From a virus: a DNA stretch of 35,837 nucleotides. The stretch covers positions 1-35,837 of the IMG/VR virus record IMGVR_UViG_3300009376_000814. One strand, given 5' to 3'. The notes under the pieces are model-generated. The model was not told where the DNA came from. It was given only the letters and a program-made list of their open reading frames with translations, and did no database searches. The position numbers and the translations under genes are program-made. Below, piece after piece: positions 4,069 through 28,492 of the stretch (its first letter is position 1; every line of letters begins with the position of its first letter).

Positions 4069-4096
4069 GTTTCTATTCTTACTCCTTATGTAAAGT

Positions 4097-4129
4097 TTTT
4101 CGTCCCGTCTGAGCCCCCGCCAGGGGGGC
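4097..4129 (-). promoter_or_regulatory. Intergenic hairpin plus GGGACGAAAA element
   Basis: Between the 42-residue and 166-residue genes, a 6-bp GC-only stem (4113-4118 with 4124-4129) is followed on the minus strand by GGGACGAAAA (4106-4097). There is no T-run, so it is not a standard terminator. The same decamer occurs at 33979-33988 and 35404-35413, also in minus-strand intergenic gaps. Confidence 0.45.
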
Positions 4130-4135
4130 GAAGAC

Positions 4136-4264
4136 TCACTTCTTCTTTTTCTTGTACCCGCTGGCGTATGCTGCTCGGGCCTGTTTCTGTGCCTGCGCCT
4201 TAGATGGGTACGTCTTGCCCTTGCTTCCCCACTTGTATCCGCCGTTGGTTTTCTTGACTGGCAT
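4136..4264 (-). CDS. Small Lys-rich phage protein
   Basis: 42 residues, starting MPVKKTNGGYKWGSKGKTYP and ending in a GYKKKKK tail. Small proteins of this type, with the pattern KGGYKWGxxGKxYPSKAxAxxQxRAxYASGYK, are familiar in podovirus genomes; their function is unknown. It is strongly basic (about one residue in three is Lys or Arg), which would suit nucleic acid binding. GGGG about 8 nt before ATG is a modest ribosome-binding site. It lies 4 nt after the preceding gene in the operon, so it is likely co-translated with it. Confidence 0.75.
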   Translation of the reverse strand: MPVKKTNGGYKWGSKGKTYPSKAQAQKQARAAYASGYKKKKK

Positions 4265-11704: not shown

Positions 11705-11945
11705 TGGGTTTGAGTCCGCAGTCATCGGCGTTGTCCGCCGATTCTCAGACACGTTTATCTTGCTGGACGAAGAGAAGTGTATTGAACTGCTTGAAGCCGA
11801 TGGCATGGCCTTCGAAGAAGCGATCGAATACTTTGAGTTCAACGTCATAGGAGCGTGGATGGGGCAGGGCACCCCGGCGTTTCTGTCAGCTCGTCTTACG
11901 ATAGAGCTCAGGGAAGAGATGGGCTCAGACGAGATTACCAGCTAG
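11691..11945 (+). CDS. Small acidic phage protein
   Basis: 84 residues from ATG 11691 with GGGAG about 10 nt upstream. It is acidic; VRRFSDTFILLDEEKCIELLEADGMAFEEAIEYFEFNVIGAWMGQGTPAFL is a pattern seen in small conserved phage proteins of unknown function found near the structural/replication boundary. It is the last gene of the rightward operon, and its stop lies 11 bases inside the end of the convergent 3436-residue gene, with no terminator between them. Confidence 0.7.
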   Translation: MLVPDGFESAVIGVVRRFSDTFILLDEEKCIELLEADGMAFEEAIEYFEFNVIGAWMGQGTPAFLSARLTIELREEMGSDEITS

Positions 11946-14900
11946 ATCCCCAGCCAGATCCCCAACTTCCACTTGATTTGCTTTTCCGAGCAGTCGCTTC
12001 TCCTGCGACTGAATCCACAACACCTTCCCTAAACGCCCGGATTCCACCAAGAATCGGGATGCGACTGGCAACTTGTCTGGCCGCTGCCCTGCGTTTCCCC
12101 GGTGCTTCGTCGCCCCTTATCATCGAGTGAGCGCCCTGGAATACTTCAATCGCTCCTTGTGTGTGACTGAAGCTGGGGCCAAGGAGTGCCGACATGATTC
12201 TGTTCACGCCGTACTGCCCGTTGTCTGCGTTGGCAGCAGCGCTGTGCATCAACTCACCGAGTAACGACAAGCCACCCAGATGCCCGAAGCCTTCAACGTA
12301 GTTGCCGAGCCATGCGTCCATGTCTGGATGGAGGCGCGGATCATAGCCGAGCGTCTCTGCTAATTCTTCCAAGCCGATCGAGTCGAGTGACTTGTTAAGA
12401 GATCGCTCTCGAAGGGCTGACTCGCGTTCGGTATCGCCACCACGGAATTGCGCGTAATCCTTGGCTGCCAGTGATCCGGCACCAAACCACGGGGCAATCG
12501 CCGCGAAATAGAGCAGGGGGGTTTTGTTCCCGGCTTTGAATTCCTGAATGATCCCCGTGGTTTCATTACGTCCACCGACCATACGGCCCATCATCATCGG
12601 GAATGACTTTAACTGGAACACCATAGCCCCGATCGGTGTTTGACCCCACATTGGGATGTCGTTCGGGTTGGGGGCGTAGATGGACTGGTTAGCAAATTTA
12701 ATCAGCGACATCTTTAGAGCGTCGTCTGAGCCGATATCGTTCGGTGTATCGAGCTGGTAGGCGCCATCTTTCATCAGATGCTCGAGGCCGTACGATTTCA
12801 AAACACGAAACGCTCTCTTACCTCGTCGACTATCTTTGCCGTATTGGAAGTAATTTTTCTGCTCGGCCTTGAACCAGTTGTATCCGACCAATCCTGCCCA
12901 CTCTCGTTGCATCTGAGTCCACGGAGTCAGCATCGTTGCATTGAAGAAAGATGTTGCAAGTTTCGATCCGTCCACACCGTACTGGTGAACCAGTCGCTCA
13001 TGCACGAGGTTCTCGATGGCTATGCCGGATTCGCGCATCATGTCCCGGTAGTTCGGGTTTTTGGCCCAGTCACGCATTCCTCGGAGCCAAGCCTTAATTG
13101 ATCCCGAACGGATTAGAGGCAGCACCGGGTCAGTGGTAGACGTCAGTGCCGTCCATCCAAGCAATGTGACTGCGGTGAAGTTGCGCGCCTTCTTCGATAA
13201 GTTATGTTGGGGCTCAAAGAACCGGCTGCCACCATCGATGGGTTTACGCTGAAGTGCGTTCATCATCATTTCGATGTGATCGAGTTCCTGAGAATGGATG
13301 ACCGGATCTTCCTGAACAATCTTCATTGCAGCGACAATCGCATCGACTCGCTTACCCCATTCCGGGTTCGGCTCTTCAGACAGATCATCGAGATATTTCT
13401 TGGCGGCGAGAGCGCCACGGTTGCGGTACAGATCCATTGCTTGACGTACAGCAACTGCGGCGTCATTTCGTGACTCTGCACTGTAAGGTGCGTTGATGAC
13501 CCGGTGCTTGAAGTTAGCGTGCTCTACGACAGCCTCGCCCCCGACTCTTCCCTTAATGGGACGCATCTTGATTGAGTCAGAAACGAGAAGATCAATGATT
13601 CCTTCTTCGCCTTCTTGGATGACTTTCTTGTATGCGTAGAAGCCGTGGTTCTTGACGCCAAACTTGTTGTGGAACAGCAGCCTGGATGTTGTGCCATCAA
13701 GGTACTTGACGAGCACGTCGCGCAGATTGTTTTCGAGGAAGGGCTCGAGCGCATCAACCATCTCGGGGTACTGATCCAGACGGATCAGCCTCTGGTAGTC
13801 GATGTGGTCAGTTACCTTGTCCCGACTTCCACCGCCAGCGGGGGGGAGATTGATGCCGTCTTCAAGCAGGAGCGTCTCAGTCATTCCATCAGCTCGGTGT
13901 AGCGCATCAGACATTGATAATGTCTCTCCACGGTCCTGAGCTTCGTGGACAAAATACCTGGCCATCCCCCGTCTGAAGTCATCCATGTTTCTACGGATCT
14001 TCTCTGTGCTCCAAATCTGGGGGAAGTAGTTTTCGATTCGGCCAGTAATGATTCCGGCCTTCTCCATTTCATTTATCTCGTCGGCGAACATACCGCGAAT
14101 CATTGCTAGTGTTTCTCGACCAGCGGGGGTCAACGACTTCTCGTATTTATTCCCCGGAGCCCGTCTGAGCGCCTTCGCAATTTTTTCTTCTTCCGCCGTC
14201 ATATTCTTGGATAGCGGATTGGATTTCGACATCCATCTCTTCATTGCGCCTTTGACATTGTGGCCAGAAGTTGCGTCGTTCAAGCGCTTGATGATTGGCA
14301 TGATCTTGCCAGCGAGCATGATGTGGTGACTTTCATAGTATCCGGTGCCTTCGACTGGGGCCACCCAGTCAGCAAACCAATTGCCGCCCCAAGCGCGGAT
14401 CCGACTGGAGTTGGTTCTGAGCTGCAAGCCGCGAGCAACTTTCCGCACCTCCCGTATATCAGAGTCGGTGGCTTTCTTGCCCTTAAGCATATTCCGCATC
14501 GTATCGACCAGACGGGGCGATGTGCCTCCTTCTTCCAGGGAGTTACCGATTGCAGAGAAGTTCATCGCATTGTTTCTTGCGCGGGCGTCTGCGATGTGTG
14601 CGGACATCAAAATGCCGTTCGGGGTTACGCCATCGACCACATCAGCTCGCGGTTGAATAACGTGCTGGCTGAATACGTCTGACGTGCCGTCAAACTCTTT
14701 TGCTGTCAGCGCTTTGACCTGGCTCTGATCCCAAACCACAGCCCCATCAAACAGAGTTTCATCCCCATTATGGTCAACAAAACCGTGCGTGTATGTCATC
14801 CCATCGTAGCCAAGCTCATCTTTCAGGAACTTGGCCAGAAGTTCTTTTGCGTGTCTCTTGCCAAGCGAGTTTTGATTGGCGTGAAATGCGTCGACAAGCG

Positions 14901-17900
14901 CTTTGTATGTGTCGCTTCCGTTTAGTGGTCGGCTGAAGTTGGCGTCAATTCGGCGCAGCGCGAATGAATCAAGCACACCCATCGTTGATCCAAGTTCTAC
15001 AATTTCTCTAATCAGGGGGCTGTTCATGTCGTAAGACCGAGCATCTCTGAAGTCAACTGGATGGTTAATGTGGGCAACCATCGGGATCATGTGGGGGTCA
15101 TCGCCAATGCCGTGTTCGCGGAGCATGTCTTGCGCGAAGCGTTCGACATCGCCAGCGACCCGCATGTATTCTTTAGATTCACGAATGCTTCTGGCGATTC
15201 GTGAATTCTTGTTGAGATCCTCAAACGTCATGCTGGGATCTTCGTAGGTGATCTCCTGCTCGATTCGGCGAAGCAGGGCATTGTTGTGCCGGATAACATT
15301 TCGGGCATCGAGCAGATCGAGCGCGACACCGAGCATTTCTTCCGCTTCCTTGTCGGTCAGGGCGCCTTTCTCCAATGCGTCTCTGATGCGGAATTCGTAG
15401 CTACGGCTGGAAACAGCACCGCTGGCGTAAAAAGTCGCAGCCTTCCTGGCGTTCTCGCCATAAGTGACATAGAAGCCCGGCCCCCAGACAGAGCCGGAAT
15501 CAGACATGTTTACTTTAAATTCGGGGGTGGCCTCGATCGGTCCGCTGGCTGTGCCGTGCCAAAAGACTACGGGCGATGAGTCGCTCGCTCTTCCTATGCC
15601 GCGCCCAACGAATGACATGACCGCATCAAACCGCTGTGGGGTCATTGATTCCAAAAGCTGACCGACGTATTCAACGGAATATTCCTGGGGAATTGCCGTG
15701 CGTCTGCCAAGGGTATCAAGTAGTGGATGCTTACCTCCGACACGCAACGGGGCGAACATATCGCCGAATGCGTCCAGCATTGGGAATTTAGCTTTTAGCT
15801 CTTTGCTTTTGATTTGACCATTGAGCACGTAAGCCAGACCCTCAATGGTCCTGTCTTGTATGTTGACTAAATGCGGGTCAGATATCTGGGATCCAGAATT
15901 ATTTAAAAGGCGCGCGGTGTCAAAAGCAAACCAGTGCAGAGCATCGTCACGTTCCTCGTCAGCGTAAGTCCGGCGCTCAAATTTAGCCAACTGGCCTGTC
16001 GCGTTGTAATTTTGTTTTTGACGGAGCATGTCGTCCGTCCTGCTGATTGGCCTGTAGGCCTTCATCACGGCAGTAACATCTTCTTCAGAGAGAATGCCAG
16101 AGTGGATAACGTGGCCTAAAGTATCGGTTATCGATTTAACGTGGCCACGCCCCTTCGCAACTTTGTTCGACCCCTGCAACCCGACAACTATTTCTCTGAT
16201 AGATCGTCTGAGGGACTGGAATTCTGGGTCTCCAAAATCAGTAAATACAGAATCCGGGTGCCGGGGTTTTGGTCGTTCTGCTCCCGTAAAATCAGCCAAG
16301 CGGTAGATGTCACCGTTGGTGACGAGATTCTCGTGCTCCGGTCCCGGTTGAGTTCGTCCGGCCAACGCAAGAAGGCGGTACATGATCCGTCTTTCAGCTA
16401 CTTGCCTGGCTGGGTTACGGTTGCTGAACTGAGTGAGAATTTCTCGAACATTTGCCCTGGCGCTTGCGGGGATGCCATCGTTTGCCTCATCGCCAACGGT
16501 GTCCGCAAGTTCGCGAGTCATAATGTCTATGACGTGCTTGCTGCGCACCGCCTGGATCTTATTGTCCGGGTTGTTCTTGTTGTGAGCGCGGCGACCATAC
16601 TCGTACAAGACTTGGTGCAGTCGTCCAGAATCACCTGCTCGCCAAGCATCTCGGCCAGCAACGAGAAGATCTTTGGTGTTCATTTCGAACACCTCGTTTG
16701 GTATCTCGACTGGATCCACTGGAAGGGGGCGGGCTGCAACACGAGCTCCGTACTCATTGGCGATTTGCTTGCCAAATTTGCCGGTTGAGTGCTGTTCCCA
16801 AAGCGTGAGAAGTTCGTCGTCTGAGAGTGTCTTCAGGCTTGGGGAGTTGACGGGAGGCGCGCCATTGTCTTTGGCCACCATGTTCTGCGCCTTCTCGAGA
16901 TCCTTGGCCACGCGCTCCTTGCGCTTCTCTCGTTGTTTGGCCGCTGCTGCATACTTCCGGCCACGACCGCCGCCCTTGCGTCCGGGGGCTCGGTAATCTC
17001 CGTTTGCATTTTTGTATGCGTATTTCTTGACGGAAGGCGGCATGTTGTCTGTCCGGTAGTGCTCGCCTTCTGTGTTGTAAAACTTCTTGGCAAGACGTTG
17101 TCTGATGTCTTCGACAATGTCTCGAATGGGGCGCATGGGCACATTTGGCTGTTCTGCGACAATGCCTTCATCGAGGAGCCTGCGGACGAGTTCAGTCCTT
17201 CTTACAAACTCCATAGAAGATGGATCAATGTCGCTTAGGACTTCGATCGATCTATCGAAATTGATACCTTCTGGAATATTGAGCGCGTCTTTGAGTTCCC
17301 GTGATGCTCTTGCAATTTCAGACTTGATTGGCGCAACAGCGTTAAGTGGGTTCTTACCGTCTGCACCACCGCCAATGGAGTAGAGGTAGTGCATCAACTC
17401 TACTGGGACGAAGAGGGATTGCTCGATATCTTCGCCCTCGAGTGAGCCCTCGAGTCGTTCCATAATATCGTCGAGCGCCCATGCCCGATTCATAATCGCC
17501 TGGCCCGCCCGTGTACCTGCTCTAGTGGTGGGACCGCGAAGTGCTGCGGCGCGTGCCTCATTTGCAGGAAGAATCTTCTTGAACAATCGCTCCATCTCTG
17601 GATCAATTCTTCGGCCATCCATGTACCTGTCAAAGATGGCTTTCATGTAGTTGACCATTCTTACCCAGAATGTTTCATTACCGATTTCATTGCGGTAGAC
17701 GTTCTGAGTGGCCCAGCGTTCTAACTGACTTGCGAAGAATTCCCCTGGGCCTTCAAGTGCATTGGTTCGGATAAGCGCATTGTCAATCGTTCTGCCTTCA
17801 AGGGCGGCGAGATTCAGCGATCCGTCTTCATTGTAGTAACGATTGAACATTTGCAGATATTCAATCTTGTCTGCATCTGTGAGGATGTTGTCCCATGCCC

Positions 17901-20900
17901 AGTGACCGACTTCGTGAATCAGGCGGCCAGCGTTCGGTGCGTATCCGTTTCCTAAGTCGCCAACTTCAATGGTGTTCTTACCATGGGCGAAACCAAACCC
18001 ACCGTCTTGGTTAGCCTGAATAATTGGGGCGCGGCCCGGCGCGCCACTTGGGGACAACTTGTAAGCGATTGACAGTTTCTGCAAAACACTTCGCGCAACT
18101 GTCTTGGTTGCTTCGTCAGACTCGCTGAAGATGTTGTTGACTAAGCGGTCTGTTGCCTGGGTAAGATCTTCGTCCTGCCTTCTTATCCCGTTGGGGGCGA
18201 GTTGGCGACGCACTTCAAGCATGGTCTCAAGCATTGTCACTCGATCCCGATGCTCATCGATCGTTTTGGCGAAGCCTCCTTTCTTTGATTCTGGGAAACC
18301 GTGGCCCAGGTCTAAAATTACTCTGTCGAGGTTTGAGCCAGTGATTACGATTCGGCCGTCTTTATATGCGGCGTTATCAAAATATTCTGAATACTTCGTT
18401 CCAACCTGAAGGATTTTTTCGTATATGTCACTGAAGGGGCCGGTGACAACACGGCCGCCAGTTTTCGGGGTTGAGAACAGCTCAAAGGTTTGAGCAGCAA
18501 ACGTGTCGATTGACGTCTGATCAGATCCCGGCTGGCCTTCTGGAATTTTTGCGATGGCGGGGGCATCGTCTGGTGTATCTGGGACGAAGTGCTTAGCGAA
18601 GTTGGGGTCAGACGCGCTTATTCCACGGGGTACTGATCCAACGATCCAGTCCTCTTCTTTCGCGTTACCGAGCAAGTCCCGATAACCCTTGCCAGCAGCA
18701 ATCTGGTTCTGGGAAATAACCCGTTTACTTTTTCTCTCAGACAAGTCGCTATCACGTTTGACGATTGCAACAACACGATCACCCTTGCGAACTCCAGGTT
18801 GTACAGAAGGTTCTGGAATCGCGATGCTCGTCCCCTCGAGTGCGAATTCCTCGTTGATGCGTTTAATTGCATCTTGCAACGTCTGGGGGTTTCCACTTTC
18901 CTGGTAGTCTTGGAATGCTCTAGTGATTGCTACGGTGTGCTCTTCTGGAGTCCTGGCAACGGAGTCGAGAATCTCTACATCGCCGTCTTCGTTCGTGACC
19001 TGTCTGCGACCCGTCTGAACAACGGTGGCGCCAGCTTCGTCTGGAGTTACCGCGCTCTCAAGTCCGTCCTCGTCATATATCAGTTCGGCGTCGTCTACCT
19101 GTTCTGGAGTTTTGTCTGGGGACTTCTCTTGTTTGGGGCCAAGACGCGCCTCCAGACGTGCAAGTTCATCTTGCATTTCTGGATACGCAACTGCTTCTTT
19201 CTCTGTTAGTAGCGCATTCCGATCAATCTTTGCTTTGATGTTCTTGATTGCTTCGGCCAGGGTTACGCGGCGGCGCTCCGCAGCAGCATTATGCGCCGCG
19301 TCAGGCGTTACCTTGGGGCCAAGATCAACGTCCTCTGCGATCTTATTTGCGACGTTGATGTTGTTTCGGTTGGAGAAGACACGGCCAGTGGTGGGGTCGT
19401 ACCAGACTTCCTGGCCCTTTTTAGCGAACGCTGGTTTGAATACACGTTCGCCCATCTTTTGTAGCTCAAGCAGTTCTTCTGTTGCCTGGGCATCTCCCTT
19501 GTCCGCTCGGGACTTGGCATCTTCTATTGCCTCTTCTCTCTGTCTGCGCGCATCGACATTCTCGGTATCGACGCGTTTGGTGTCAGACAGGCGTTCGGTG
19601 CCTGTGGCCCTGAATTTGATGGGAGATTTGGTGCCAGTTAAATCAGCATAGGCTCGCGCTTCAGTTTCGCCCTGAATACCGCGTTCCTGTGCTTCGCCAG
19701 TAAGTCGGGCTGTGGTCTTTGTTCCTTCGTCTGGGGCGGCTTCCTGCGGGACCGCGCGCTCGAGATCTCTTTGTGCTTTGGCTTCGCGAGCGATCCGCAA
19801 ATTTTCTGCAATAATTTCCGCAGAAGTTTTTTGTTCGTCCGTGCGTGGGCCAAGCGATCCTTCAACCTTGTCTATTGCTGTTTGAGTTGCGCTCTTCTTA
19901 CGTTTGCGCGGGCCGATCTTTCCTTCGAGATAGTCGGCGCGAACCTGTTGCTCCAAGCGGACGCGAGCTGCTTTGAGAAATCCATCGACTGAACCGTACA
20001 TCTCTTTCATGGCTGGGTTGGCCATGAGCATCGGTGTAGCGTTTTGTTCTATCTGTTTCCAGCGCTTGCCGACTTCTCTATTGATCCACTTGGCATCTTC
20101 GTCATTAAGGCCTTCTAGGAAATGATGAGACTTTGGCTCCTGGTTCATGATAGTGAGCCACTGATCTTTCATAGCGTCCTGCACATCTTTGGGCAGGCCG
20201 TTTTGCTCGATCCTGTTGAACACAATGGTTCGATCCAAGAACGAATCAGGGTTAGCCAATATCATTTCTGTGGAAAGCGCTACCAGTGCGTCTTCAGCAG
20301 ACTTGGGGGCACTGCTTGCCGCAGTTTCACCGACGGGTGTCTCGTTAGCCTCTACTGACGCAGCGTCTTCGTCGGCCTTCGTTTTCCACTCATCGAATTC
20401 CGCCAGGATTTCTTCTGTTGTCTTATTGGATCCGTCTGGTCGTTTTACTCCAAGGCCAGCGTGCTGAGCCAGCTTATAGGCCAGACGTTGGGGTCGCGTC
20501 TTTTCTAACTGCTGTTCGGTAACGATGTTGTTATCGAGCAGGTATTGTCTGTGGGTATCTTTAAGTTTCTTAGGACGCCCCTTCGTCTGAGCCGGTTCCG
20601 CATCGGCGGTGGTGGTGGCGGTGTCACCGGTGGTGGGAGCGGTGTCGGCGGTGGGGGTGGCGTCGGTGGTGGGAGCGGTGTCGGGAAGCGGCTCTCCTCT
20701 GGCACCAATAGCAGCGGCGTCTGAGCTGGGTTCCGGCTCAGACGGCTTCGGCGGGCCAACTTGCTCGGGTGGTTTTGGCGGCCCGGCGGGGTCAATAACT
20801 TGACCGGCATTTAGATTGTCAGCTCCCCACGATGTTTCCGCAGACTGAAGAAAAGAAGGCTGGTCTAAAGTTTGGTCTAATTGATCAAGCTCGGATGGGT

Positions 20901-22245
20901 CTAGCGCGACTCGTCTGAGTAATGTTTCGTATTCTGCTCGCGTCTTTGCGTTGTCGATTGTGCGAATGCGGCCGATCTCAATTCTTTTGGGATCGTTTGA
21001 TGCGAGCATTGCATCAATTTCAGCCTGCTCTCGAAGAATCCTGGCTTTCCAGTTTTGAAGTTTTCTAATATTTGACAGGCGAGTAGCAGCTTCCTGAATT
21101 TGATCCCAAAGAGTGGACTCTGGTCCTGACCCCTCTGCCGATAAGCGAAGATCTACAAGTTCTTCTTCTACCTGTCTTCGCTGCTCAGCCAGGAGACGCT
21201 CTTCCGCATCGAGGCCCGAATCCGGTGAGCGGGTTGGTTCAATTCCGGCGCCTAACGCGAGCTCTTCTTCAGACATGGTGTCTGAGCCATAGTGCGGAGC
21301 CCTGTCGAGGTTCTCAACTTCTTCTTCAGTAAGCGGTCGTCCACTGGGGACTCCGTCTTCGAACATGCTCGGGTCGTTAAACATCCCGATGGTGTCACCG
21401 GGGACTGTTCTTTCGATATGGGGGGCGGGGAGGCTTTGCTGCCAGGCTTCTTTGAATTGCTGCTCACCGAGCTGCGCAATGTCTTCGTCTCGCCAGCCAG
21501 CGGATCTGAGTTTTTGGATGTTGCTCAGTGCGCGAGTGCCAACGAACCAAGTGGCTCCGCCTGAGATTGCGCCGCCAATTACACCGCCGATGAGCACCCC
21601 GAATCCCGTGGCAAGCCCGAGTTCTCCATAATCGAATTCATCTTGGACGCCGATCTCTATATCGCGGAGTTGGCCCATGGTATTGAGCGCTGCTTCTTGG
21701 CCACCAGAGATTCCGGCTTCGAGGGCGCCCACTTGCGCCATTCGTTTCTTGCCAATCGCGGAAGTTGCTGTTTTCCCCTTGGCTATCTTGCCCGCAAGCG
21801 CTGCGCCACGTATGCCTTTTGCTGCTAAGCCAATGCCCCCGAAGTTCGTGATGTCCCACAAGGCATTGCCGACATATCCGCGCGTCCATTCCCACCACCC
21901 TGGGTGTCCTTCCTCGCCAGGTCCAGGCATGTGCTGACGGACGCGAGCAAGGCGGGACTTGATGCGCTTCATCTCCTGGTCATCGTTTGATGCTTCTGCT
22001 AACAGGCGTCCAGCGAGCAGAAGATTTGTGTCACCACCGGATTGGAGCCGATACCAGTAGTTGACCATGTCCTCATCTGAATCGAACTTGCCGCCCTCTA
22101 CTTCGAATAATCTCCGCATGTCCGCCAGGACTCGAGGGTCAGACAGCACTTTCGACTTGTCTATGGATTCGACGTCATAGTCCCATTGGTCTGAGTTCTC
22201 ATTAATGTTGCTCTGCTGAGCTATGAGTTCATTAAGGGTGGGCAT
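11935..22245 (-). CDS. Giant polyvalent virion/ejection protein with zincin and ADP-ribosyltransferase-like domains
   Basis: 3436 residues in one uninterrupted frame; GGAG lies 10 nt before ATG. Regions: residues about 115-240 hold Gly/Ala-rich segments, including GVLIGGVIGGAISGGATWFV, suitable for membrane insertion; about 490-560 is a Pro/Thr-rich linker; about 560-1300 is charged and largely helical; H1444-E1445-V-G-H1448 with E1502 (GEFFASQLE) is a zinc metallopeptidase site; about 2225-2515 is ADP-ribosyltransferase-like (WHGT with H2230, GPGFY with Y2259, ending VVWDQSQVKAL); 2550-3436 is helical with a Ser/Gly/Trp tail (GSWGSGWGSSW). It is downstream of the other ejection-protein candidates in the late operon, so it is probably carried in the virion and injected, like T7 gp16 or DarB-type proteins. 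No T7-like RNA polymerase motifs were found, although the length resembles N4 virion RNA polymerase. Confidence 0.85.
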   Translation of the reverse strand: MPTLNELIAQQSNINENSDQWDYDVESIDKSKVLSDPRVLADMRRLFEVEGGKFDSDEDMVNYWYRLQSGGDTNLLLAGRLLAEASNDDQEMKRIKSRLARVRQHMPGPGEEGHPGWWEWTRGYVGNALWDITNFGGIGLAAKGIRGAALAGKIAKGKTATSAIGKKRMAQVGALEAGISGGQEAALNTMGQLRDIEIGVQDEFDYGELGLATGFGVLIGGVIGGAISGGATWFVGTRALSNIQKLRSAGWRDEDIAQLGEQQFKEAWQQSLPAPHIERTVPGDTIGMFNDPSMFEDGVPSGRPLTEEEVENLDRAPHYGSDTMSEEELALGAGIEPTRSPDSGLDAEERLLAEQRRQVEEELVDLRLSAEGSGPESTLWDQIQEAATRLSNIRKLQNWKARILREQAEIDAMLASNDPKRIEIGRIRTIDNAKTRAEYETLLRRVALDPSELDQLDQTLDQPSFLQSAETSWGADNLNAGQVIDPAGPPKPPEQVGPPKPSEPEPSSDAAAIGARGEPLPDTAPTTDATPTADTAPTTGDTATTTADAEPAQTKGRPKKLKDTHRQYLLDNNIVTEQQLEKTRPQRLAYKLAQHAGLGVKRPDGSNKTTEEILAEFDEWKTKADEDAASVEANETPVGETAASSAPKSAEDALVALSTEMILANPDSFLDRTIVFNRIEQNGLPKDVQDAMKDQWLTIMNQEPKSHHFLEGLNDEDAKWINREVGKRWKQIEQNATPMLMANPAMKEMYGSVDGFLKAARVRLEQQVRADYLEGKIGPRKRKKSATQTAIDKVEGSLGPRTDEQKTSAEIIAENLRIAREAKAQRDLERAVPQEAAPDEGTKTTARLTGEAQERGIQGETEARAYADLTGTKSPIKFRATGTERLSDTKRVDTENVDARRQREEAIEDAKSRADKGDAQATEELLELQKMGERVFKPAFAKKGQEVWYDPTTGRVFSNRNNINVANKIAEDVDLGPKVTPDAAHNAAAERRRVTLAEAIKNIKAKIDRNALLTEKEAVAYPEMQDELARLEARLGPKQEKSPDKTPEQVDDAELIYDEDGLESAVTPDEAGATVVQTGRRQVTNEDGDVEILDSVARTPEEHTVAITRAFQDYQESGNPQTLQDAIKRINEEFALEGTSIAIPEPSVQPGVRKGDRVVAIVKRDSDLSERKSKRVISQNQIAAGKGYRDLLGNAKEEDWIVGSVPRGISASDPNFAKHFVPDTPDDAPAIAKIPEGQPGSDQTSIDTFAAQTFELFSTPKTGGRVVTGPFSDIYEKILQVGTKYSEYFDNAAYKDGRIVITGSNLDRVILDLGHGFPESKKGGFAKTIDEHRDRVTMLETMLEVRRQLAPNGIRRQDEDLTQATDRLVNNIFSESDEATKTVARSVLQKLSIAYKLSPSGAPGRAPIIQANQDGGFGFAHGKNTIEVGDLGNGYAPNAGRLIHEVGHWAWDNILTDADKIEYLQMFNRYYNEDGSLNLAALEGRTIDNALIRTNALEGPGEFFASQLERWATQNVYRNEIGNETFWVRMVNYMKAIFDRYMDGRRIDPEMERLFKKILPANEARAAALRGPTTRAGTRAGQAIMNRAWALDDIMERLEGSLEGEDIEQSLFVPVELMHYLYSIGGGADGKNPLNAVAPIKSEIARASRELKDALNIPEGINFDRSIEVLSDIDPSSMEFVRRTELVRRLLDEGIVAEQPNVPMRPIRDIVEDIRQRLAKKFYNTEGEHYRTDNMPPSVKKYAYKNANGDYRAPGRKGGGRGRKYAAAAKQREKRKERVAKDLEKAQNMVAKDNGAPPVNSPSLKTLSDDELLTLWEQHSTGKFGKQIANEYGARVAARPLPVDPVEIPNEVFEMNTKDLLVAGRDAWRAGDSGRLHQVLYEYGRRAHNKNNPDNKIQAVRSKHVIDIMTRELADTVGDEANDGIPASARANVREILTQFSNRNPARQVAERRIMYRLLALAGRTQPGPEHENLVTNGDIYRLADFTGAERPKPRHPDSVFTDFGDPEFQSLRRSIREIVVGLQGSNKVAKGRGHVKSITDTLGHVIHSGILSEEDVTAVMKAYRPISRTDDMLRQKQNYNATGQLAKFERRTYADEERDDALHWFAFDTARLLNNSGSQISDPHLVNIQDRTIEGLAYVLNGQIKSKELKAKFPMLDAFGDMFAPLRVGGKHPLLDTLGRRTAIPQEYSVEYVGQLLESMTPQRFDAVMSFVGRGIGRASDSSPVVFWHGTASGPIEATPEFKVNMSDSGSVWGPGFYVTYGENARKAATFYASGAVSSRSYEFRIRDALEKGALTDKEAEEMLGVALDLLDARNVIRHNNALLRRIEQEITYEDPSMTFEDLNKNSRIARSIRESKEYMRVAGDVERFAQDMLREHGIGDDPHMIPMVAHINHPVDFRDARSYDMNSPLIREIVELGSTMGVLDSFALRRIDANFSRPLNGSDTYKALVDAFHANQNSLGKRHAKELLAKFLKDELGYDGMTYTHGFVDHNGDETLFDGAVVWDQSQVKALTAKEFDGTSDVFSQHVIQPRADVVDGVTPNGILMSAHIADARARNNAMNFSAIGNSLEEGGTSPRLVDTMRNMLKGKKATDSDIREVRKVARGLQLRTNSSRIRAWGGNWFADWVAPVEGTGYYESHHIMLAGKIMPIIKRLNDATSGHNVKGAMKRWMSKSNPLSKNMTAEEEKIAKALRRAPGNKYEKSLTPAGRETLAMIRGMFADEINEMEKAGIITGRIENYFPQIWSTEKIRRNMDDFRRGMARYFVHEAQDRGETLSMSDALHRADGMTETLLLEDGINLPPAGGGSRDKVTDHIDYQRLIRLDQYPEMVDALEPFLENNLRDVLVKYLDGTTSRLLFHNKFGVKNHGFYAYKKVIQEGEEGIIDLLVSDSIKMRPIKGRVGGEAVVEHANFKHRVINAPYSAESRNDAAVAVRQAMDLYRNRGALAAKKYLDDLSEEPNPEWGKRVDAIVAAMKIVQEDPVIHSQELDHIEMMMNALQRKPIDGGSRFFEPQHNLSKKARNFTAVTLLGWTALTSTTDPVLPLIRSGSIKAWLRGMRDWAKNPNYRDMMRESGIAIENLVHERLVHQYGVDGSKLATSFFNATMLTPWTQMQREWAGLVGYNWFKAEQKNYFQYGKDSRRGKRAFRVLKSYGLEHLMKDGAYQLDTPNDIGSDDALKMSLIKFANQSIYAPNPNDIPMWGQTPIGAMVFQLKSFPMMMGRMVGGRNETTGIIQEFKAGNKTPLLYFAAIAPWFGAGSLAAKDYAQFRGGDTERESALRERSLNKSLDSIGLEELAETLGYDPRLHPDMDAWLGNYVEGFGHLGGLSLLGELMHSAAANADNGQYGVNRIMSALLGPSFSHTQGAIEVFQGAHSMIRGDEAPGKRRAAARQVASRIPILGGIRAFREGVVDSVAGEATARKSKSSGSWGSGWGSSW
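20629..20684 (-). repeat. GC-rich minisatellite in the giant gene
   Basis: A 20-bp unit starting GGTGGTGGGAGCGG is exactly repeated at 20629 and 20665 (36-bp period), with further partial copies around it. It encodes the DTAPTT/DATPTA linker near residues 521-560. The period is 12 codons, so copy number can change in frame. Confidence 0.8.
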
Positions 22246-22246
22246 A

Positions 22247-24697
22247 TTATTCAGACTCCAATAATTCTTGCAGACGCGCTTGATGCTCTAATAGTTGTTC
22301 TTCGAGTTTGGTAATACGGTCTTTTCGGAATGTCTCTATTCGCTTACCAAAGCGTCTCGGAGAAGACGGACCAGACGTATCAATCGGTTCTTGCAGCTTA
22401 TTTAATTCGCTTTGGATTTCCGCGATCTGTTTCTCTAGTTTTCGTTGTTTCATGTCTTTGACGGCAGAGATATTTCCGTGACGGTAAGATCTGGTCGTGG
22501 TGTTTTTTCGGACTGTGTCTTTGTCAGATCCTGGTCGCTCATCTTTCGGGGGATCTGGTAAGTTAATAGACCCCAGATTTGCTTGAATGTCTTTTATCGT
22601 TTGGAGGTAGCCCTTGAGCGTCTCAATGTTGTTGTCCTGAATATTTCCCCCGAATCGGCCAGGCATACTGATATATGTCTGGATCTCCGCTTCTGCTTGG
22701 GCGAGGGCTTTGTACATCTCATCCGCCTGATTCACGATCGGCGTTACTTTGGTGTCGTAATTTTCCCGAGTTAGATCATCACCCAGACTGCTAAGTTCTT
22801 TTTGAATGTTGATGACAGAGTTGACGAAGTTTTCCGCTTCTTTAATCCCTTGTGTGATCTCATCGTTGTACGTGTCTGCGTCAATGTATTGAGGCCCGAC
22901 AAGATATGCGGCCTTGCGCTGTGCCTCAGACGACATAAACTCAGATTGCGTCTTGGGTAGCCGGTGAGCCGTACCCGTGGCAGCAAGCATCTCATTTTGC
23001 GCTGCCTTGAATATTGGTCCAGCACGTTGCTGAAGACGTGTTGCGATGGCAAAGGTATTAACAGGCTTGCCATCTGTCAGTTCTTCTTTGTTGTCCGCTG
23101 CGTAGTCAATCAGAGCTTGGATGTAATGATTGGTGCCGCTTGATAGATCGAAGTAATAGACGCCTCCCGCATTAAAGAGCTGTTGGATCGCTTTTGAGAC
23201 TGCCATCTGGTATGGCTTATCGTTTGCGAATCGCTGATCACCGCTTTCCCCCACCAAGCCCGTTATTGCATTTGTTTGGTTCTTATACTGGTCGCTGTTC
23301 AGGTACTTCTTTTGGGCATCAAGCTCTTCGTGATACGTCTTTAACATATTGCCCTTGTATTCGGACTGGTTCTTCGCAAATACTCCCTTGCCGATTGCGT
23401 TTAAGCGGGACCACATATCTTTTGCCGTTATTTCTTCGGGGTTAGGCATATTTGCTTGTTTAGCTAATTCTCGAAACCGTGATAGTTTTTCTTCCTCAGT
23501 TGTGTTGGGAGCAGTAAGTCCAGACCATTCGTGTTCGTCTTTTACAAGTTTGTCGAGTTCTGATTCGGCTTGAGCAGTTTCAGCGCGGATTGTTTTTGCG
23601 TAGTCGCGTTCTGCCGACGTTTTAATTTTTGAGATAAGCGACTCATTGGTTATGCCAAGTTGCTTCCCAAGCGCCACGGCATCTATTGTCCCGTCTGAGC
23701 CCGATAAAAGGCTTCTAATCATTGACTCATGTTTTGATAATGCTTCATTGGCAAGCTCATTCATTATTGGGTCAATGTTTTCACTTGAGCGTCGGGTAAT
23801 TAAATCGGCTGCGGCGTCACCTTCGTAGCCCATGTCTTTAGCAGTTTGTTGGGCCGCCTGTTTTTGGTCTTTATAGAGTTTTAGATTGGCGAGCCAAGTA
23901 GATTTTTCTTTTGACGCGATTTGCTGTGCGCGATTAGTTTCGTTAAATGCGGCTAGTTGTTGGTCGGACAGTCGTTGTCTGGCGATGTCTTCATTGACCT
24001 GGGTTAGTTGATCTTTGGTGCGGAACATCGTGTTCCACACGCTGTTACCGCCAAGACGATCGCCCCAGGTAGATTTGAATTGCTGCTGAGCATCTTCCCA
24101 TTTGGATAAGTCGATCGCGCCTGTAGAGTCAGTTAGTCGCCCTAGAATATCTTTCCACTCTTGTCGGGCAGCGGCTCGTCGGCCGGAGAATAACTCTTTC
24201 CCCTTCTGGTCTGCATATCGATACAGGGATCCAGTGTCTCCGGTAGCGGGGCTGCCCAGGGTGCGCAGCCCCTTGAAAGCAGCATCGGCCGCATCCATTC
24301 CCGTGCCTTCGATGAAATCTTTTCGGATTTGCAGGATGGCGTCATAGTCTTCCTGTGGCTTGCCAGTGGAACTGGTTTCCATGTAATCCTGGTATCGCCT
24401 ATCGAGTTCTGACTGAACTGTTTTTCTGCGATCCAGAACTTCACCGGTGCGCTTCCAGTTCGCTTCTTGCAGATTTTTTTGAGCGATTTCGCTGAGGCGA
24501 TCGTCGTCAGGAAGTAAGGCAAGCAGAGACGAGCGGCCATTGGTTATCGCATCACGGGCGAGTTTCATGTCCTCGACTGTCCAGTCGGGGTTTAGCCTTA
24601 ACTGCTCCGCAAATTTTGCAGCAATGCCAGACGCGTCTTTCTGCTTCTGGGCTTCGGCCTCAGCCCAACCCTTGCCTACTGCTCCTAGTACCCACAT
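22247..24697 (-). CDS. Large helical internal virion (ejection) protein candidate
   Basis: 816 residues, ending 1 base before the giant gene start. Composition is almost entirely helical and charged, rich in Gln, Lys, Glu and Ala, with no signal peptide. It starts with a short hydrophobic patch (MWVLGAVGKGW) and ends in two coiled-coil segments (AVKDMKQRKLEKQIAEIQSELNKLQ and ITKLEEQLLEHQARLQELLES). Length and position match the second internal protein of podoviruses (T7 gp15, 747 residues), which forms a channel across the envelope with its neighbours. Homology cannot be shown by eye. No peptidoglycan hydrolase motif is visible. Confidence 0.7.
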   Translation of the reverse strand: MWVLGAVGKGWAEAEAQKQKDASGIAAKFAEQLRLNPDWTVEDMKLARDAITNGRSSLLALLPDDDRLSEIAQKNLQEANWKRTGEVLDRRKTVQSELDRRYQDYMETSSTGKPQEDYDAILQIRKDFIEGTGMDAADAAFKGLRTLGSPATGDTGSLYRYADQKGKELFSGRRAAARQEWKDILGRLTDSTGAIDLSKWEDAQQQFKSTWGDRLGGNSVWNTMFRTKDQLTQVNEDIARQRLSDQQLAAFNETNRAQQIASKEKSTWLANLKLYKDQKQAAQQTAKDMGYEGDAAADLITRRSSENIDPIMNELANEALSKHESMIRSLLSGSDGTIDAVALGKQLGITNESLISKIKTSAERDYAKTIRAETAQAESELDKLVKDEHEWSGLTAPNTTEEEKLSRFRELAKQANMPNPEEITAKDMWSRLNAIGKGVFAKNQSEYKGNMLKTYHEELDAQKKYLNSDQYKNQTNAITGLVGESGDQRFANDKPYQMAVSKAIQQLFNAGGVYYFDLSSGTNHYIQALIDYAADNKEELTDGKPVNTFAIATRLQQRAGPIFKAAQNEMLAATGTAHRLPKTQSEFMSSEAQRKAAYLVGPQYIDADTYNDEITQGIKEAENFVNSVINIQKELSSLGDDLTRENYDTKVTPIVNQADEMYKALAQAEAEIQTYISMPGRFGGNIQDNNIETLKGYLQTIKDIQANLGSINLPDPPKDERPGSDKDTVRKNTTTRSYRHGNISAVKDMKQRKLEKQIAEIQSELNKLQEPIDTSGPSSPRRFGKRIETFRKDRITKLEEQLLEHQARLQELLESE

Positions 24698-24709: not shown

Positions 24710-26164
24710 TCAAGTTATAGGGGGGTTGTGGGTGTTCGATTGAAACAACTTAGCCCAGTCAATGTTTCCAAGAGCGGTGCCAAATCCTTCGCCTGCGGCC
24801 TGAGTAGTTCTTTGCCAGCCCTGAGCCTGTTGACTAGACTGACTTAGGCCACTTCCCAATAAGTTGCCTGCGAGTTGCGCGAAGAGAGATGCGCCCGGCG
24901 CGCTTTGCGCCGATGTCTTATAGATTGCTGAGGGGTTGGTGCCAGCGTATGCAGCGGAGGGCAGATTAAGCGTTGATGCCATCCGTGATTGTGGGTTGAT
25001 GTTGTCGTAGATTGCCGAATTGAGTGACATGTATGGCGCGTACCCCGTGGCTGATGCGATCTGGCCACGGTTTGCGGCTGACGCAACATTCCTGTCGTAG
25101 ATACCGCTGGATGCGCCCAGGCCAGCGGCTTGGATTTCGTAAGGCAGAGAGGAGTACGTCTGAGATACTTCACCCAGAAGTTGGCCTCGGCGTGCCATAT
25201 CGAAGGCCTGATTCTGCTGCTCCATTCCCTGCGCCCCGGTGATGTACTTAAGGGCTTCGTCGTATGCTCGGTCGTAGGTGGAGGCGTACTGATCAGCAGC
25301 TCGGGCGGTGATGCGCGCTAGAGTGTCTTCCGCGTGTGATCCGGGCCGGAAGTCTTCGCTGCCGATTGTGTCGCCGTACATTCCCTTACGCATAAGGCCA
25401 GCGACTGCTTCAGATGTGGTTGCCTTCGTCGCACGGTCTAAGGCCTTGTTGTAACCGACCATCCGTCTGATGGCGTCGTCTTCTACATCCGATAGATCAA
25501 AGAAACGTGCGGTACGGGCCGGGCCAAGTGAATCGCGGGCTCTGCGCATCTCGTCAGACAACTGCTGAGTGCGGCCAAGCATTGAATCCCGTAATCGAAG
25601 ATCGAGATCGCGTTCGTCTTGTGCAAGTTTTTGCGCGGTTCGGAGCTCGTCTGTATCGAAGCGACGTTCACTCGCCAACTGGCCCTGGTATCGTCTGAGC
25701 TCTCCTCTATCTTCTATTCGTTCCCGGCCCAGATCTGATTGCAGTTTGCGTAACTGGGATTCAGCGAACTGCCGTTCTTGGCGTGATAGGTTCTGGTTCT
25801 GGAGTAACTGACGGATCTGGAATTCGCGCTCTTCTTGGGCGACTGAATCCAGATCTCTCTGGCGTTTCAAGGTGTAGTCGCGCTCAGCCGCCTTGATCTT
25901 TCGGATCATGTCGTTCTGGGAGCGGCTATATGCCCGCTCATCAAAAGCGATTCGTCTATTTAACTGATCACTTTGGAATTGCCTGTTTTTGTATTGGCGG
26001 TCCAGGTCCAGTTGATCCATCATGTGGTTCAACATCGCTGAGCCCATGCCGCGATTTTGGTAGATGAGGTTGTACAGCGCGGCCTCGGATTTCGCCTGCT
26101 GGCCTAAAGATGCGAAGGTGCCGATCCCCGAAAATACAGCGGGTAATATTGATGCCCAGCCCAT
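24710..26164 (-). CDS. Helical internal virion protein candidate
   Basis: 484 residues. The N-terminus is weakly hydrophobic (ILPAVFSGIGTFASLG), followed by about 200 residues of very Arg/Gln/Glu-rich helix (DLDRQYKNRQFQSDQLNRRIAFDE...) with repeated REFQIRQLLQN, ERQFAESQLRKLQ and RELRRY heptads, then an Ala/Gly/Ser-rich C-terminal half. Podovirus gp14-like ejection proteins have a similar plan: a membrane-active N-terminus and coiled-coil body. It lies between two other ejection-protein candidates. No enzymatic motif is seen. Confidence 0.65.
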   Translation of the reverse strand: MGWASILPAVFSGIGTFASLGQQAKSEAALYNLIYQNRGMGSAMLNHMMDQLDLDRQYKNRQFQSDQLNRRIAFDERAYSRSQNDMIRKIKAAERDYTLKRQRDLDSVAQEEREFQIRQLLQNQNLSRQERQFAESQLRKLQSDLGRERIEDRGELRRYQGQLASERRFDTDELRTAQKLAQDERDLDLRLRDSMLGRTQQLSDEMRRARDSLGPARTARFFDLSDVEDDAIRRMVGYNKALDRATKATTSEAVAGLMRKGMYGDTIGSEDFRPGSHAEDTLARITARAADQYASTYDRAYDEALKYITGAQGMEQQNQAFDMARRGQLLGEVSQTYSSLPYEIQAAGLGASSGIYDRNVASAANRGQIASATGYAPYMSLNSAIYDNINPQSRMASTLNLPSAAYAGTNPSAIYKTSAQSAPGASLFAQLAGNLLGSGLSQSSQQAQGWQRTTQAAGEGFGTALGNIDWAKLFQSNTHNPPIT

Positions 26165-26186: not shown

Positions 26187-28010
26187 TTAAACGAGTGTGC
26201 CAAACGCGCTACTGGTTGTTGGTGTGTCGTCTTCTTCTTTCTTTTTGATCAACGCCTGGTATTCAGCCGCTGTCATTGGCCCACCGAGGCCAAAAGATCT
26301 TGGCAGCATTCTTGAGTCGGCAGCCTGTTCAGCCGCAGACTTGGCGCTGGCATCAGCGCCCAGACGATCACGCTCTTTTGCGATCTGAGCGAGAATTAGA
26401 TCGAGTTCATCGTAGGCGGAGTCAGCCCCGTAGAGTTCGATATCCCCACGGAGACGTTCTAGTGCATCTGCTGACGCGTCTAGTTGGCCAGTGTTGTAAT
26501 AGCCAAGTTTGGATTGGCCGAGCATACTGCGGGCACGCGACTCAAGAGAGCGCCGCTTGTTCATAAGATCTTGGACGCGCGCTTCAACGGCTGAGAGCTG
26601 GTCGTCAAATGCGTCAGTGGCGTCTCCCGCGCGGCCGCCTGTGTACTCTGCTGCGTCGCGCCGGTTGTCTTCAATCTTACGCATCAAAGCGTCGAGCGCG
26701 CTTTCATCGTATATAGGTGTTCCAGAAATTTTCGAGCCGTACGCTCCAGCATCGGAAATAAGCGCGTCAAGTTCGGATTTTCTCCTGGCAATGAGTGATG
26801 CGACCTCATCGTCAACGCCGCCGAGCGTGCTGAGCGCTTTGGAGAAGTCGGTTGGCAGCAATGATTTAAACCCGCCGATGTCTTCTCTTAAGATGTCGGC
26901 TTCATCTTCGAGATCTTGTATTGATCGCAGATCTCGAGTATCGAGGTAACGCCCAGATCTCTTGTAGCCAGCAGCGATATCGCGGAATCTATCCTGAGCG
27001 TCTTCTATTCGGCGCTCCTCTTCTTCTCTTTCTTGCAAGAGCTGGGCAATGTCGCCGGAAATATCCTGACCCATCTCTTGTTGGGTTGAGAAGTCGAACG
27101 GCAGCAGTGAACTAAATCTCTTGGCGCCGCGTTCTGCGGTCCTGAGTTTGTCCTCCATTGCTTCGAGTTCATCTAAATGAGAGATGTTGTATCCCCCAAC
27201 ATCTTTCTCGTATCCGGCCAACAGGTCGTCTAGGTCTTCACCGTAGGTTTTGATTCGCCCTTCTTCTGTTACTCTGTCGTCGATCAGTTGGTCGAATCTT
27301 CCACGCAGGGTGTCATAAGAGGTTTTTTTCTTCCCCTTCCAGTCAGACGGCATGAATTTGTTGTCTTTGAACCTAGCGGTCTGAGATCTTTCATCTCCGA
27401 GTAAATCAATAGAGGAGTAGACGCCGCCCCCCTTAAGCGCGTCGCTAATATCGTAGCCCCGATAGGCACGCTGCAAAGCCCTGATGTCATCATTTTGCTC
27501 ATCTCTAAAGGCTTGCCAGGCTGATTTCTTTGTGGTGTGATCACTGTGCAGTGTGTTTGCGCGCTGAACATTCCCAGAAATAAGCGAGCTGAGGTTCGAC
27601 GCATACGATTCATCAGCGGGGGAGTGGATGTTCCACATGCTTGAGAAATCGTATGTGTGCTGCCCGCCCCATGGGGTTTGTACGGTGCGCTGTGCGGAAG
27701 GACGAGATCCCTCCGGTCGGGAGAGGCCAGATAGTGCCGACTGTCTTTGCTCTGATGCGGATTTAAGACCGGTCAGGTTTCCGAGGGAGGCCGTGTAGTC
27801 AAGGCCAGACAATTTTGTCTGCGCCTTTTTAGCCTCGTCCTGTAAGCGTTCGAGGTTCCTGTTGTAGCGGTTCGTCTGAACTTCCCATGGATGCACTATG
27901 GCCCATTGTGCATTCAGTGCCGCTTGTCTGTTATCGCGAATCCACTGATCTTTTTTCGCTTGATCTGCCCATGGATCTTTCGATCCGCCGCCGCCGCCGT
28001 ATAAGCCCAT
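26187..28010 (-). CDS. Helical virion protein with internal tandem repeats
   Basis: 607 residues. It starts with a Gly-rich MGLYGGGGGSKDPW. Between residues about 255 and 460 an 82-residue unit repeats at least twice: LxxLExxxDxLRxAE..., then FSSLLPFDFS near 300 and FKSLLPTDFS near 382, each followed by a helix and a tyrosine-containing turn. The rest is charged coiled coil (EVASLIARRKSELDALI, VEARVQDLMNKRRSLESRARSML). Such repeated helical bundles suit an extended structural protein in the head or a tail core. It is probably the first ejection protein, expressed before the 484-residue protein. Confidence 0.6.
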   Translation of the reverse strand: MGLYGGGGGSKDPWADQAKKDQWIRDNRQAALNAQWAIVHPWEVQTNRYNRNLERLQDEAKKAQTKLSGLDYTASLGNLTGLKSASEQRQSALSGLSRPEGSRPSAQRTVQTPWGGQHTYDFSSMWNIHSPADESYASNLSSLISGNVQRANTLHSDHTTKKSAWQAFRDEQNDDIRALQRAYRGYDISDALKGGGVYSSIDLLGDERSQTARFKDNKFMPSDWKGKKKTSYDTLRGRFDQLIDDRVTEEGRIKTYGEDLDDLLAGYEKDVGGYNISHLDELEAMEDKLRTAERGAKRFSSLLPFDFSTQQEMGQDISGDIAQLLQEREEEERRIEDAQDRFRDIAAGYKRSGRYLDTRDLRSIQDLEDEADILREDIGGFKSLLPTDFSKALSTLGGVDDEVASLIARRKSELDALISDAGAYGSKISGTPIYDESALDALMRKIEDNRRDAAEYTGGRAGDATDAFDDQLSAVEARVQDLMNKRRSLESRARSMLGQSKLGYYNTGQLDASADALERLRGDIELYGADSAYDELDLILAQIAKERDRLGADASAKSAAEQAADSRMLPRSFGLGGPMTAAEYQALIKKKEEDDTPTTSSAFGTLV

Positions 28011-28012
28011 AA

Positions 28013-28492
28013 CTAAGCCTCTTTTCTCATCTCGTGGTGTTCCTTAATCCAATCTTCAAGTTGCTCTTCATTGTCTCGGAACTGGTTAAATTCAAATATT
28101 CGCTTGATCATATTGCGGGCATGACTCATCCCCCCGCAGATCATCCCCACCGTGATAAAGGTGTTTACGGCCATCCGGTAAACAAAACCAAATACCTGCT
28201 CCTTGGGGACTGAGCTTTTGGCCCAGTCGTTGCTGACATCCCAAAGAAGGATGTCTACGCCCGCCGATGCGGTTAAAACGTCTCTGTGTTTCTGGTAAAA
28301 CGGATTGAGTTGCATATCTACAAACATTCGATACAGCAGTTCAGACATGTCTGAACCCATGTTTTCAGAATCTCCATCAACAAGATCATCAGCGAGGCGC
28401 ATCATGCGGCCAAGAATGTGGCAAAACTGGATTGCTTCTTCGTCTCCGCACGCCAGCTCGATGTGCATATCAATGAGTGTTACTTCTCCCAT
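28013..28492 (-). CDS. Small helical protein with DDLVDGD motif
   Basis: 159 residues, all helical, no signal peptide. It has an acidic cluster RMMRLADDLVDGDSENMGSDM at about residues 31-50 and a second acidic site DVSNDWAKSSVPKEQ near 85-99. These recall the two Asp-rich motifs of phytoene/squalene-synthase-like enzymes, but the chain is half the usual length and the motif spacing is about 50 residues rather than about 120, so an enzymatic role is not claimed. A hydrophobic helix (AVNTFITVGMICGGM) lies near the C-terminus. It is packed between tail fibre and ejection-protein genes with 2-nt gaps, so it may be a chaperone or virion component. Confidence 0.6.
   Translation of the reverse strand: MGEVTLIDMHIELACGDEEAIQFCHILGRMMRLADDLVDGDSENMGSDMSELLYRMFVDMQLNPFYQKHRDVLTASAGVDILLWDVSNDWAKSSVPKEQVFGFVYRMAVNTFITVGMICGGMSHARNMIKRIFEFNQFRDNEEQLEDWIKEHHEMRKEA
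28339..28356. repeat. 18-bp perfect palindrome in coding sequence
   Basis: GTTCAGACATGTCTGAAC reads identically on both strands. It contains two opposed copies of TCAGAC, the core of the dispersed octamer. It encodes GSDMSEL in the small helical protein. Confidence 0.7.

What the first reader, a model, noticed from the sequence alone, without database searches (positions are those of the whole stretch)
11935..22245. 3436-residue polyvalent virion protein combining metallopeptidase and ADP-ribosyltransferase-like domains
One frame takes 29% of the window. It holds a HEVGH site (1444-1448) with a downstream Glu (1502), an ADP-ribosyltransferase-like domain (H2230, Y2259, C-terminal VVWDQSQVKAL) and membrane-like glycine-rich segments. 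It ends the late operon after three ejection-protein candidates. Polyvalent proteins with such domains are known from phages and conjugative elements; a fusion to an ejection protein this large suggests that host-modifying enzymes enter with the DNA before any phage transcription.
Basis: partly seen in the sequence, partly recalled or inferred. Interest (0 to 1): 0.85.

Follow-up and report, generated by a model that had tools for sequence, protein, structure and literature searches.

The report
Giant phage ejection protein carrying enzymes
A marine, integrase-carrying phage of the recently described CRP-810 family makes a 3,436-residue protein that joins a T7-like DNA-ejection part to a metal-dependent protease domain, a decayed second copy of it and an ADP-ribosyltransferase domain, so it probably delivers host-modifying enzymes together with the phage DNA; such 'polyvalent' proteins are known, but this family-wide version had not been recognised.

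Summary
The motifs are not chance: H, E, H and E of the protease site are invariant in all 42 dereplicated relatives that keep it, while flanking positions vary. The window is a fragment of a CRP-810-type phage (marine Roseobacter phages, family described 2024). In related loci, 131 ORFs carry the same modules in the same order: zincin 1, zincin 2, ADP-ribosyltransferase (ART), ejection core. A second zincin is intact in CRP-810 but decayed here (HEIGH reads TDTLG). The last ~800 aa are the best conserved part and belong to the T7 gp16-type internal virion protein family. In 50 dereplicated phages none has lost both zincins, whereas the ART site is damaged in 11. Most likely this is the gp16-position ejection protein, loaded with polyvalent effector domains; the zincin probably processes it and the ART modifies host proteins. 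Virion presence and catalysis are untested. Precedents exist: Iyer 2017 polyvalent proteins, N4 vRNAP, and the 4,515-aa JC1 gp69 found in virions. New variant of a known kind.

The parts
11935..22245 (-). giant polyvalent ejection protein, 3,436 aa
   Evidence: single open frame; same single ORF with four modules in fixed order in 131 ORFs of related loci
21436..22245 (-). N-terminal module, residues 1-270, with hydrophobic glycine-zipper-like stretch 209-237 (invariant G216, G220, G224)
   Evidence: alignment A7; hydropathy; corresponds to CRP-810 gp36, annotated 'internal virion protein D'
17536..18462 (-). zincin-like metallopeptidase domain 1, residues 1262-1570; HEVGH at 17902-17916, third-ligand Glu1502 at 17740-17742
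   Evidence: HExxH...E invariant in 42/42 intact relatives; AF2 model pLDDT 77.9, pTM 0.82 with three strands, HExxH helix and Glu helix; relatives hit DUF6782 putative metallopeptidase (1.2e-5) and Peptidase_M91
15730..16488 (-). second zincin domain, residues 1920-2172, decayed in the window: HEIGH is replaced by TDTLG (2040-2044, 16114-16128) and the AEEWFAES helix by DALHWFAF
   Evidence: alignment with CRP-810 and other relatives; intact in 22 of 50 dereplicated relatives
14656..15663 (-). ADP-ribosyltransferase domain, residues 2195-2530: H2230 (15556-15558), Y2259 (15469-15471), D2506 (14728-14730), with an inserted helical hairpin
   Evidence: PF18760 ART-PolyVal in 23/33 members, best 1.1e-11, window 0.0015; AF2 pLDDT 87.8; BFVD matches to ART-PolyVal proteins
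11938..14448 (-). C-terminal ejection core of T7 gp16 type, residues 2600-3436
   Evidence: phrog_6958 in 33/33, phrog_684 in 32/33, phrog_342 'internal virion protein with endolysin domain' in 13/33 (best 2.8e-20); collinear weak matches to T7 gp16 and clear match to HTVC103P gp52
22247..24697 (-). 816-aa protein in T7 gene-15 position (periplasmic-tunnel candidate)
   Evidence: position only; no family hit and no detectable similarity to CRP-810 gp37
24710..26164 (-). 484-aa protein in T7 gene-14 position (outer-membrane channel candidate)
   Evidence: 29% identity, E 8e-32 to CRP-810 gp38 in the same position; no family name
26187..28010 (-).
   Evidence: position; only weak coiled-coil family hits

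Best explanation
It is the gp16-position ejection protein of a CRP-810-type phage with a T7-like ejection operon, carrying about 2,600 residues of polyvalent cargo in front of a gp16-type core. Proposed sequence: (1) it is made last in the late operon and packed in the head with the products of the two genes before it; (2) on infection it leaves through the tail with them, and its conserved C-terminal core, with the glycine-rich N-terminal stretch, sits at the inner membrane as T7 gp16 does; (3) the intact zincin cuts the giant chain, most likely itself, during packaging or after entry; (4) the H-Y-type ADP-ribosyltransferase reaches the cytoplasm and modifies host protein(s), as T4 Alt does. 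Shown here: the ORF, the domains and their order, the gp16-type core, conservation of the protease site, decay of the second protease. Inferred: virion location, membrane placement, self-cleavage, ART activity and target.
For: Gene order ends gp14-position, gp15-position, giant, with 1 nt between the last two, the T7 order 14-15-16. C-terminus matches internal virion protein families and is the best conserved part of the protein. ART-PolyVal in 23/33 members, the C-terminal half detected on its own in relatives, BFVD fold matches E 2.7e-6 to 1e-3 to polyvalent/ART-PolyVal phage proteins. Zincin site invariant and model with zincin topology. Four modules in one ORF in the same order in 131 ORFs, no exception. 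At least one intact zincin in 50/50 dereplicated relatives while the ART site is damaged in 11/50, which fits the protease serving a step common to all and the ART being optional cargo. Precedent for virion presence: JC1 gp69 (4,515 aa, end of the virion module) by mass spectrometry, PMC9144972.
Against: No virion proteomics for this family. Direct profile comparison with T7 gp16 is weak (hhalign probability 5.9%, E 0.0064; two collinear pieces, E 0.004-0.013 in a small set); the link rests on PHROG profiles and on HTVC103P gp52. Neither model gives a significant PDB match. The position that would be the acidic third ART residue (D2506) varies across the family (D, N, K, S, E), so its identity and the activity of some members are uncertain. 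No cleavage site can be pointed to. The zincin pattern rests on few events (1 change of Z1, at least 3 of Z2).
Confidence: 0.65

Rival explanations
1. The zincin is itself an effector that cleaves host proteins, and the giant is delivered and acts as one uncut chain, as N4 vRNAP and plasmid ArdC/TraC1 are transferred.
For: N4 vRNAP is packaged unprocessed although it holds an MPTase domain (Iyer 2017, PMC5512222); the same paper lists host-protein targeting as a possible role. Three relatives hit Peptidase_M91 'effector protein'.
Against: A zincin is kept in 50/50 phages with presumably varied hosts while the ART is not; a host-specific effector would be expected to be lost in some lineages.
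Confidence: 0.25
2. The enzymatic domains are mostly decayed scaffolding and the protein is now chiefly structural (length or packing role in the head).
For: Zincin 2 decayed in 28/50 and ART H or Y lost in 11/50 dereplicated relatives; the third ART position is not conserved.
Against: Invariance of all four zincin-1 residues in 42/42, and of H and Y of the ART in 39/50, against a fast-changing background.
Confidence: 0.12
3. Not injected: a late cytoplasmic protein acting during assembly or lysis only.
For: No virion data for this family.
Against: gp16-type core, last gene of the late virion operon, and JC1 and N4 giants found in virions.
Confidence: 0.08

Closest known systems
Polyvalent proteins of phages and conjugative elements (Iyer et al. 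2017, PMC5512222), including MPTase + Tox-ART-HYD2 combinations
   Same: Very large, zincin(s) plus H-Y-type ART in one chain, encoded with late virion genes; about 8% of their MPTase-bearing proteins have more than one copy
   Different: Their prototype ART protein (Roseovarius Plymouth podovirus 1, CBX87992) has an N4-type RNA polymerase; here there is none and the C-terminus is gp16-type. Profiles A3-A7 do not detect that protein convincingly
CRP-810 gp34-gp36 (PMC11288001, OR671924)
   Same: Direct homologue: gp36 N-terminus (30% identity), gp35 zincins + ART (27%), gp34 core (37-39%)
   Different: Annotated as two hypothetical proteins plus 'internal virion protein D'; reading frame broken at two places in the deposited isolate; both zincin sites intact
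T7 gp16 and relatives (phrog_342; HTVC103P gp52)
   Same: Same core family by profile and same place in the operon, after gp14- and gp15-position genes
   Different: T7 gp16 is 1,318 aa; phrog_342 members are named for an endolysin domain, HTVC103P gp52 (1,671 aa) appears to end in a lysozyme-like sequence; here no murein hydrolase was detected and the cargo is zincin + ART
N4 virion RNA polymerase gp50 (PMC12633501)
   Same: About 3,500 aa, third ejection protein in the gp16 role, contains an HExxH C1 domain
   Different: Contains an RNA polymerase; no detectable sequence homology to the window protein
Bcep22-like podovirus giant, JC1 gp69 / BcepIL02 gp70 (PMC9144972)
   Same: 4,515-4,667 aa polyvalent protein at the end of the virion module, found in JC1 virions by mass spectrometry
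   Different: Transglycosylase + methylase + helicase + LPD domains; no match to the core profile A6
T4 Alt
   Same: Injected ADP-ribosyltransferase (model for function)
   Different: R-S-E clade, separate protein; here H-Y type

Membership tests
Polyvalent protein (Iyer 2017) | Several domains with unrelated activities in one polypeptide | tested here: met
   zincin 1, decayed zincin 2, ART, gp16-type core in one ORF
Polyvalent protein (Iyer 2017) | Encoded near late virion genes (phage type) | tested here: met
   major head protein and virion genes in the same minus-strand run; terminase and SU10-type portal in the 53.8-kb contig
Polyvalent protein (Iyer 2017) | Delivered into the host with the DNA | not testable with these tools
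   needs virion proteomics or a translocation assay
Zincin-like metallopeptidase | HExxH helix plus Glu in a following helix after a three-stranded sheet | tested here: met
   motif invariant 42/42; AF2 secondary structure E-E-E-H(HExxH)-H(Glu)
Zincin-like metallopeptidase | Significant match to a solved zincin | tested here: inconclusive
   no PDB hit at E<=0.001; selecase, snapalysin and AM0627 appear among non-significant hits
ART-PolyVal / Tox-ART-HYD2 | Profile match | tested here: met
   23/33 members, best 1.1e-11; the window itself 0.0015, below Pfam's cut-off
ART-PolyVal / Tox-ART-HYD2 | His in strand 1 and Tyr in strand 2 | tested here: met
   H2230 in predicted strand 34-38, Y2259 in strand 63-68 of the model; kept in 39/50
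ART-PolyVal / Tox-ART-HYD2 | Asp in strand 5 | tested here: inconclusive
   D2506 at the end of a predicted late strand, but the column varies D/N/K/S/E
T7 gp16-type ejection protein | Sequence homology of the core | tested here: met
   phrog_342 in 13/33, best 2.8e-20; phrog_6958 33/33; direct T7 comparison weak
T7 gp16-type ejection protein | Murein transglycosylase/endolysin domain | tested here: not met
   no such family hit in the giant or its slices beyond a chance-level one; so filed as having a gp16-type core only, not as a full gp16
N4-type virion RNA polymerase | RNA polymerase domain | tested here: not met
   no RNAP family hit; no profile match to N4 vRNAP

The most novel reading that the evidence does not exclude
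A gp16-type inner-membrane ejection protein that carries its own protease and an ADP-ribosyltransferase and cuts the cargo free during entry, so that channel building, cargo release and host modification are steps of one polypeptide; two zincin copies are interchangeable for the cut, so either may decay but never both.
Probability: 0.25. Interest if true: 0.75.

Novelty: new variant of a known kind. Interest (0 to 1): 0.5.

Why it matters
[quoted passage not shown] The family's giant was not recognised before, probably because the only isolate's copy is broken into three annotated ORFs. If the reading holds, it ties a T7-type ejection channel to injected host-modifying enzymes in one chain, and natural variants (zincin 1 only, zincin 2 only, with or without ART) offer a ready-made series for finding out what polyvalent zincins do, a question left open in 2017.

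Tried and rejected
PDB sequence searches with profiles of all five regions gave only coiled-coil, designed-protein or unrelated hits. Foldseek against PDB gave no significant hit for either model; for the ART the inserted helical hairpin dominates the list. An RNA polymerase domain was looked for and not found. Homology to N4 vRNAP, the RPP1 giant and the Bcep22-type giants was tested with profiles and not found beyond weak pieces. An LPD38 link of the core, suggested by JC1 gp69, was not supported (one member hits LPD39 at 0.084). The zincin-1-selected scan was left out of the loss statistics because its pattern requires the intact motif. The 2x2 probability for 'no double loss' (6e-4) is not used as proof, since zincin-1 loss is one clade.
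Full report
WHAT IS THERE. The frame lies on the minus strand, 22245 to 11935, starts with ATG, has no internal stop and encodes 3,436 aa. The finding did not state the strand. The protein begins 1 nt after the stop of the 816-aa gene and is the last gene of the minus-strand late run that includes a major head protein (phrog_1328, 8.1e-40).

WHERE IT COMES FROM. The window is a 35.8-kb virus record; three IMG/VR contigs hold the same protein at 100% identity, one of 53.8 kb, which adds a terminase (PF17289), an SU10-type portal and CobS/CobT-like genes. An integrase lies at 929-2077. The nearest isolate is Roseobacter phage CRP-810, type of a new temperate marine phage family with 251 uncultured members (PMC11288001). 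Its gp36, gp35 and gp34 are the N-terminus, the middle and the C-terminus of the same giant. In that record the frame is broken twice; at the gp35/gp34 junction a 31-bp stretch is repeated in tandem. In the relatives examined here the giant is normally one ORF (131 ORFs contain all four modules; a second split case is L037). That is probably why the paper lists only 'internal virion protein D'.

ZINCIN 1. H1444, E1445, H1448 and E1502 are each identical in 42 of 42 dereplicated relatives that keep the motif, with W1449, L1455 and A1505 also invariant and most other neighbours variable. The AF2 model (pLDDT 77.9, pTM 0.82) has three strands, the helix with HExxH and a later helix with the Glu, the order Iyer et al. 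give for polyvalent MPTases. Single relatives hit DUF6782 (1.2e-5) and Peptidase_M91. No PDB match is significant.

CRP-810 has a second site, HEIGH with a following AEEWFAES helix, about 600 residues on. In the window the aligned residues are TDTLG and DALHWFAF: the domain remains, the site is gone. In 50 relatives dereplicated at 90% identity of the core, 28 keep only zincin 1, 14 keep both, 8 keep only zincin 2, none lacks both. Zincin-1 loss is a single clade of eight (support 0.998); zincin 2 changed at least three times, the ART site at least four. The pattern suggests that one zincin is needed, but independent events are few.

ART. PF18760 ART-PolyVal matches 23 of 33 members, best 1.1e-11, the window at 0.0015, below Pfam's cut-off. 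The C-terminal half alone also matches in six of nine relatives (0.0015 to 0.04), so both halves of the split domain support the assignment; the window's own C-terminal half gave no hit. The AF2 model is good (pLDDT 87.8, pTM 0.80) and its BFVD matches include polyvalent and ART-PolyVal phage proteins (E 2.7e-6 to about 1e-3, probability 1.00). A long helical hairpin is inserted in the fold. The active-site pattern is H-Y with D2506 as candidate third residue, agreeing with the H-Y-D pattern reported for polyvalent ARTs, but that column is not conserved in the family. Eleven of 50 relatives have lost H or Y.

EJECTION CORE. The C-terminal 837 aa are the best conserved part. All 33 members match phrog_6958, 32 phrog_684 and 13 phrog_342, 'internal virion protein with endolysin domain', best 2.8e-20; that phrog_342 is the T7 gp16 family is my knowledge of its description and length, not a test made here. 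The pelagiphage protein HTVC103P gp52 matches in three collinear pieces (best about 5e-11) and T7 gp16 in two weak collinear pieces. With 484-aa and 816-aa proteins in the positions of T7 genes 14 and 15, the giant sits where gp16 sits. No murein hydrolase was detected in it. The N-terminus has a hydrophobic glycine-spaced stretch at 209-237.

HOW IT LIKELY WORKS. Late synthesis, packing in the head and ejection with the two preceding proteins follow from position and core homology (inference, with precedents: N4 vRNAP, PMC12633501; JC1 gp69 in virions, PMC9144972). The zincin is kept in every phage examined although the ART is not, so I favour a role in processing the giant itself over attack on one host target (inference). 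The ART is the likely host-modifying cargo, by analogy with T4 Alt (inference). No RNA polymerase gene was seen among the ORFs scanned in the window and the 53.8-kb contig, so host RNA polymerase is a plausible but untested ART target.

WHAT IS KNOWN AND WHAT IS NEW. Polyvalent zincin+ART proteins are known since 2017 (PMC5512222), so the class is not new. The giant of the CRP-810 family was not described as such in the papers found; its gp16-type core, the two zincins with complementary decay, and the family-wide fixed architecture are new. I file it as a new variant of a known kind.

Noticed in passing
L005 (OR671924.1) locus 12041-12150 and 18041-18140: In the deposited genome of isolate CRP-810 the giant gene is split by two frame breaks; one coincides with a 31-bp tandem duplication. 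Real mutation or assembly artefact is open; nearly all uncultured relatives have one intact ORF.
   Followed up: partly
window 28495-30315 (-): Tail-fibre-like protein with two similar internal repeats (ASQTDFDYAHESTDELLVYVNGVLKRSGSSYDYT and SQSVFAFVHDDDTQLNVYKNGILQRSGGSYDYT) and matches to several tail/virion PHROGs.
   Followed up: no
window 28013-28492 (-): 159-aa protein (phrog_21390, unknown function) sits between tail fibre and coiled-coil gene, where CRP-810 has a GNAT acetyltransferase gene; Bcep22-like phages also have an acyltransferase gene upstream of their giant.
   Followed up: no
window 3568-4068 (-): 166-aa ORF contains two copies of a motif APLEDERN(L/I)R...A(P/T)GRHGSFP; an opposite-strand ORF 3613-4203 overlaps it.
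   Followed up: no
L088 7789-9684 (-) and 9792-11846 (-): CobT VWA-domain protein and an AAA_5 ATPase (CobS-like) side by side in the 53.8-kb contig carrying the same giant; the CRP-810 paper calls them cobalamin genes, but a MoxR-VWA chaperone pair is an alternative.
   Followed up: no
L089, L090, L091: Relatives of the core in contigs binned as Neomarinimicrobiota, Phycisphaerae and Alphaproteobacteria MAGs; may be binned phage contigs rather than true hosts.
   Followed up: no
L006 14147-19162 (-), HTVC103P gp52: Pelagiphage protein with the same core that ends in a lysozyme-like sequence (by eye), suggesting that the core exchanges its enzymatic cargo.
   Followed up: partly
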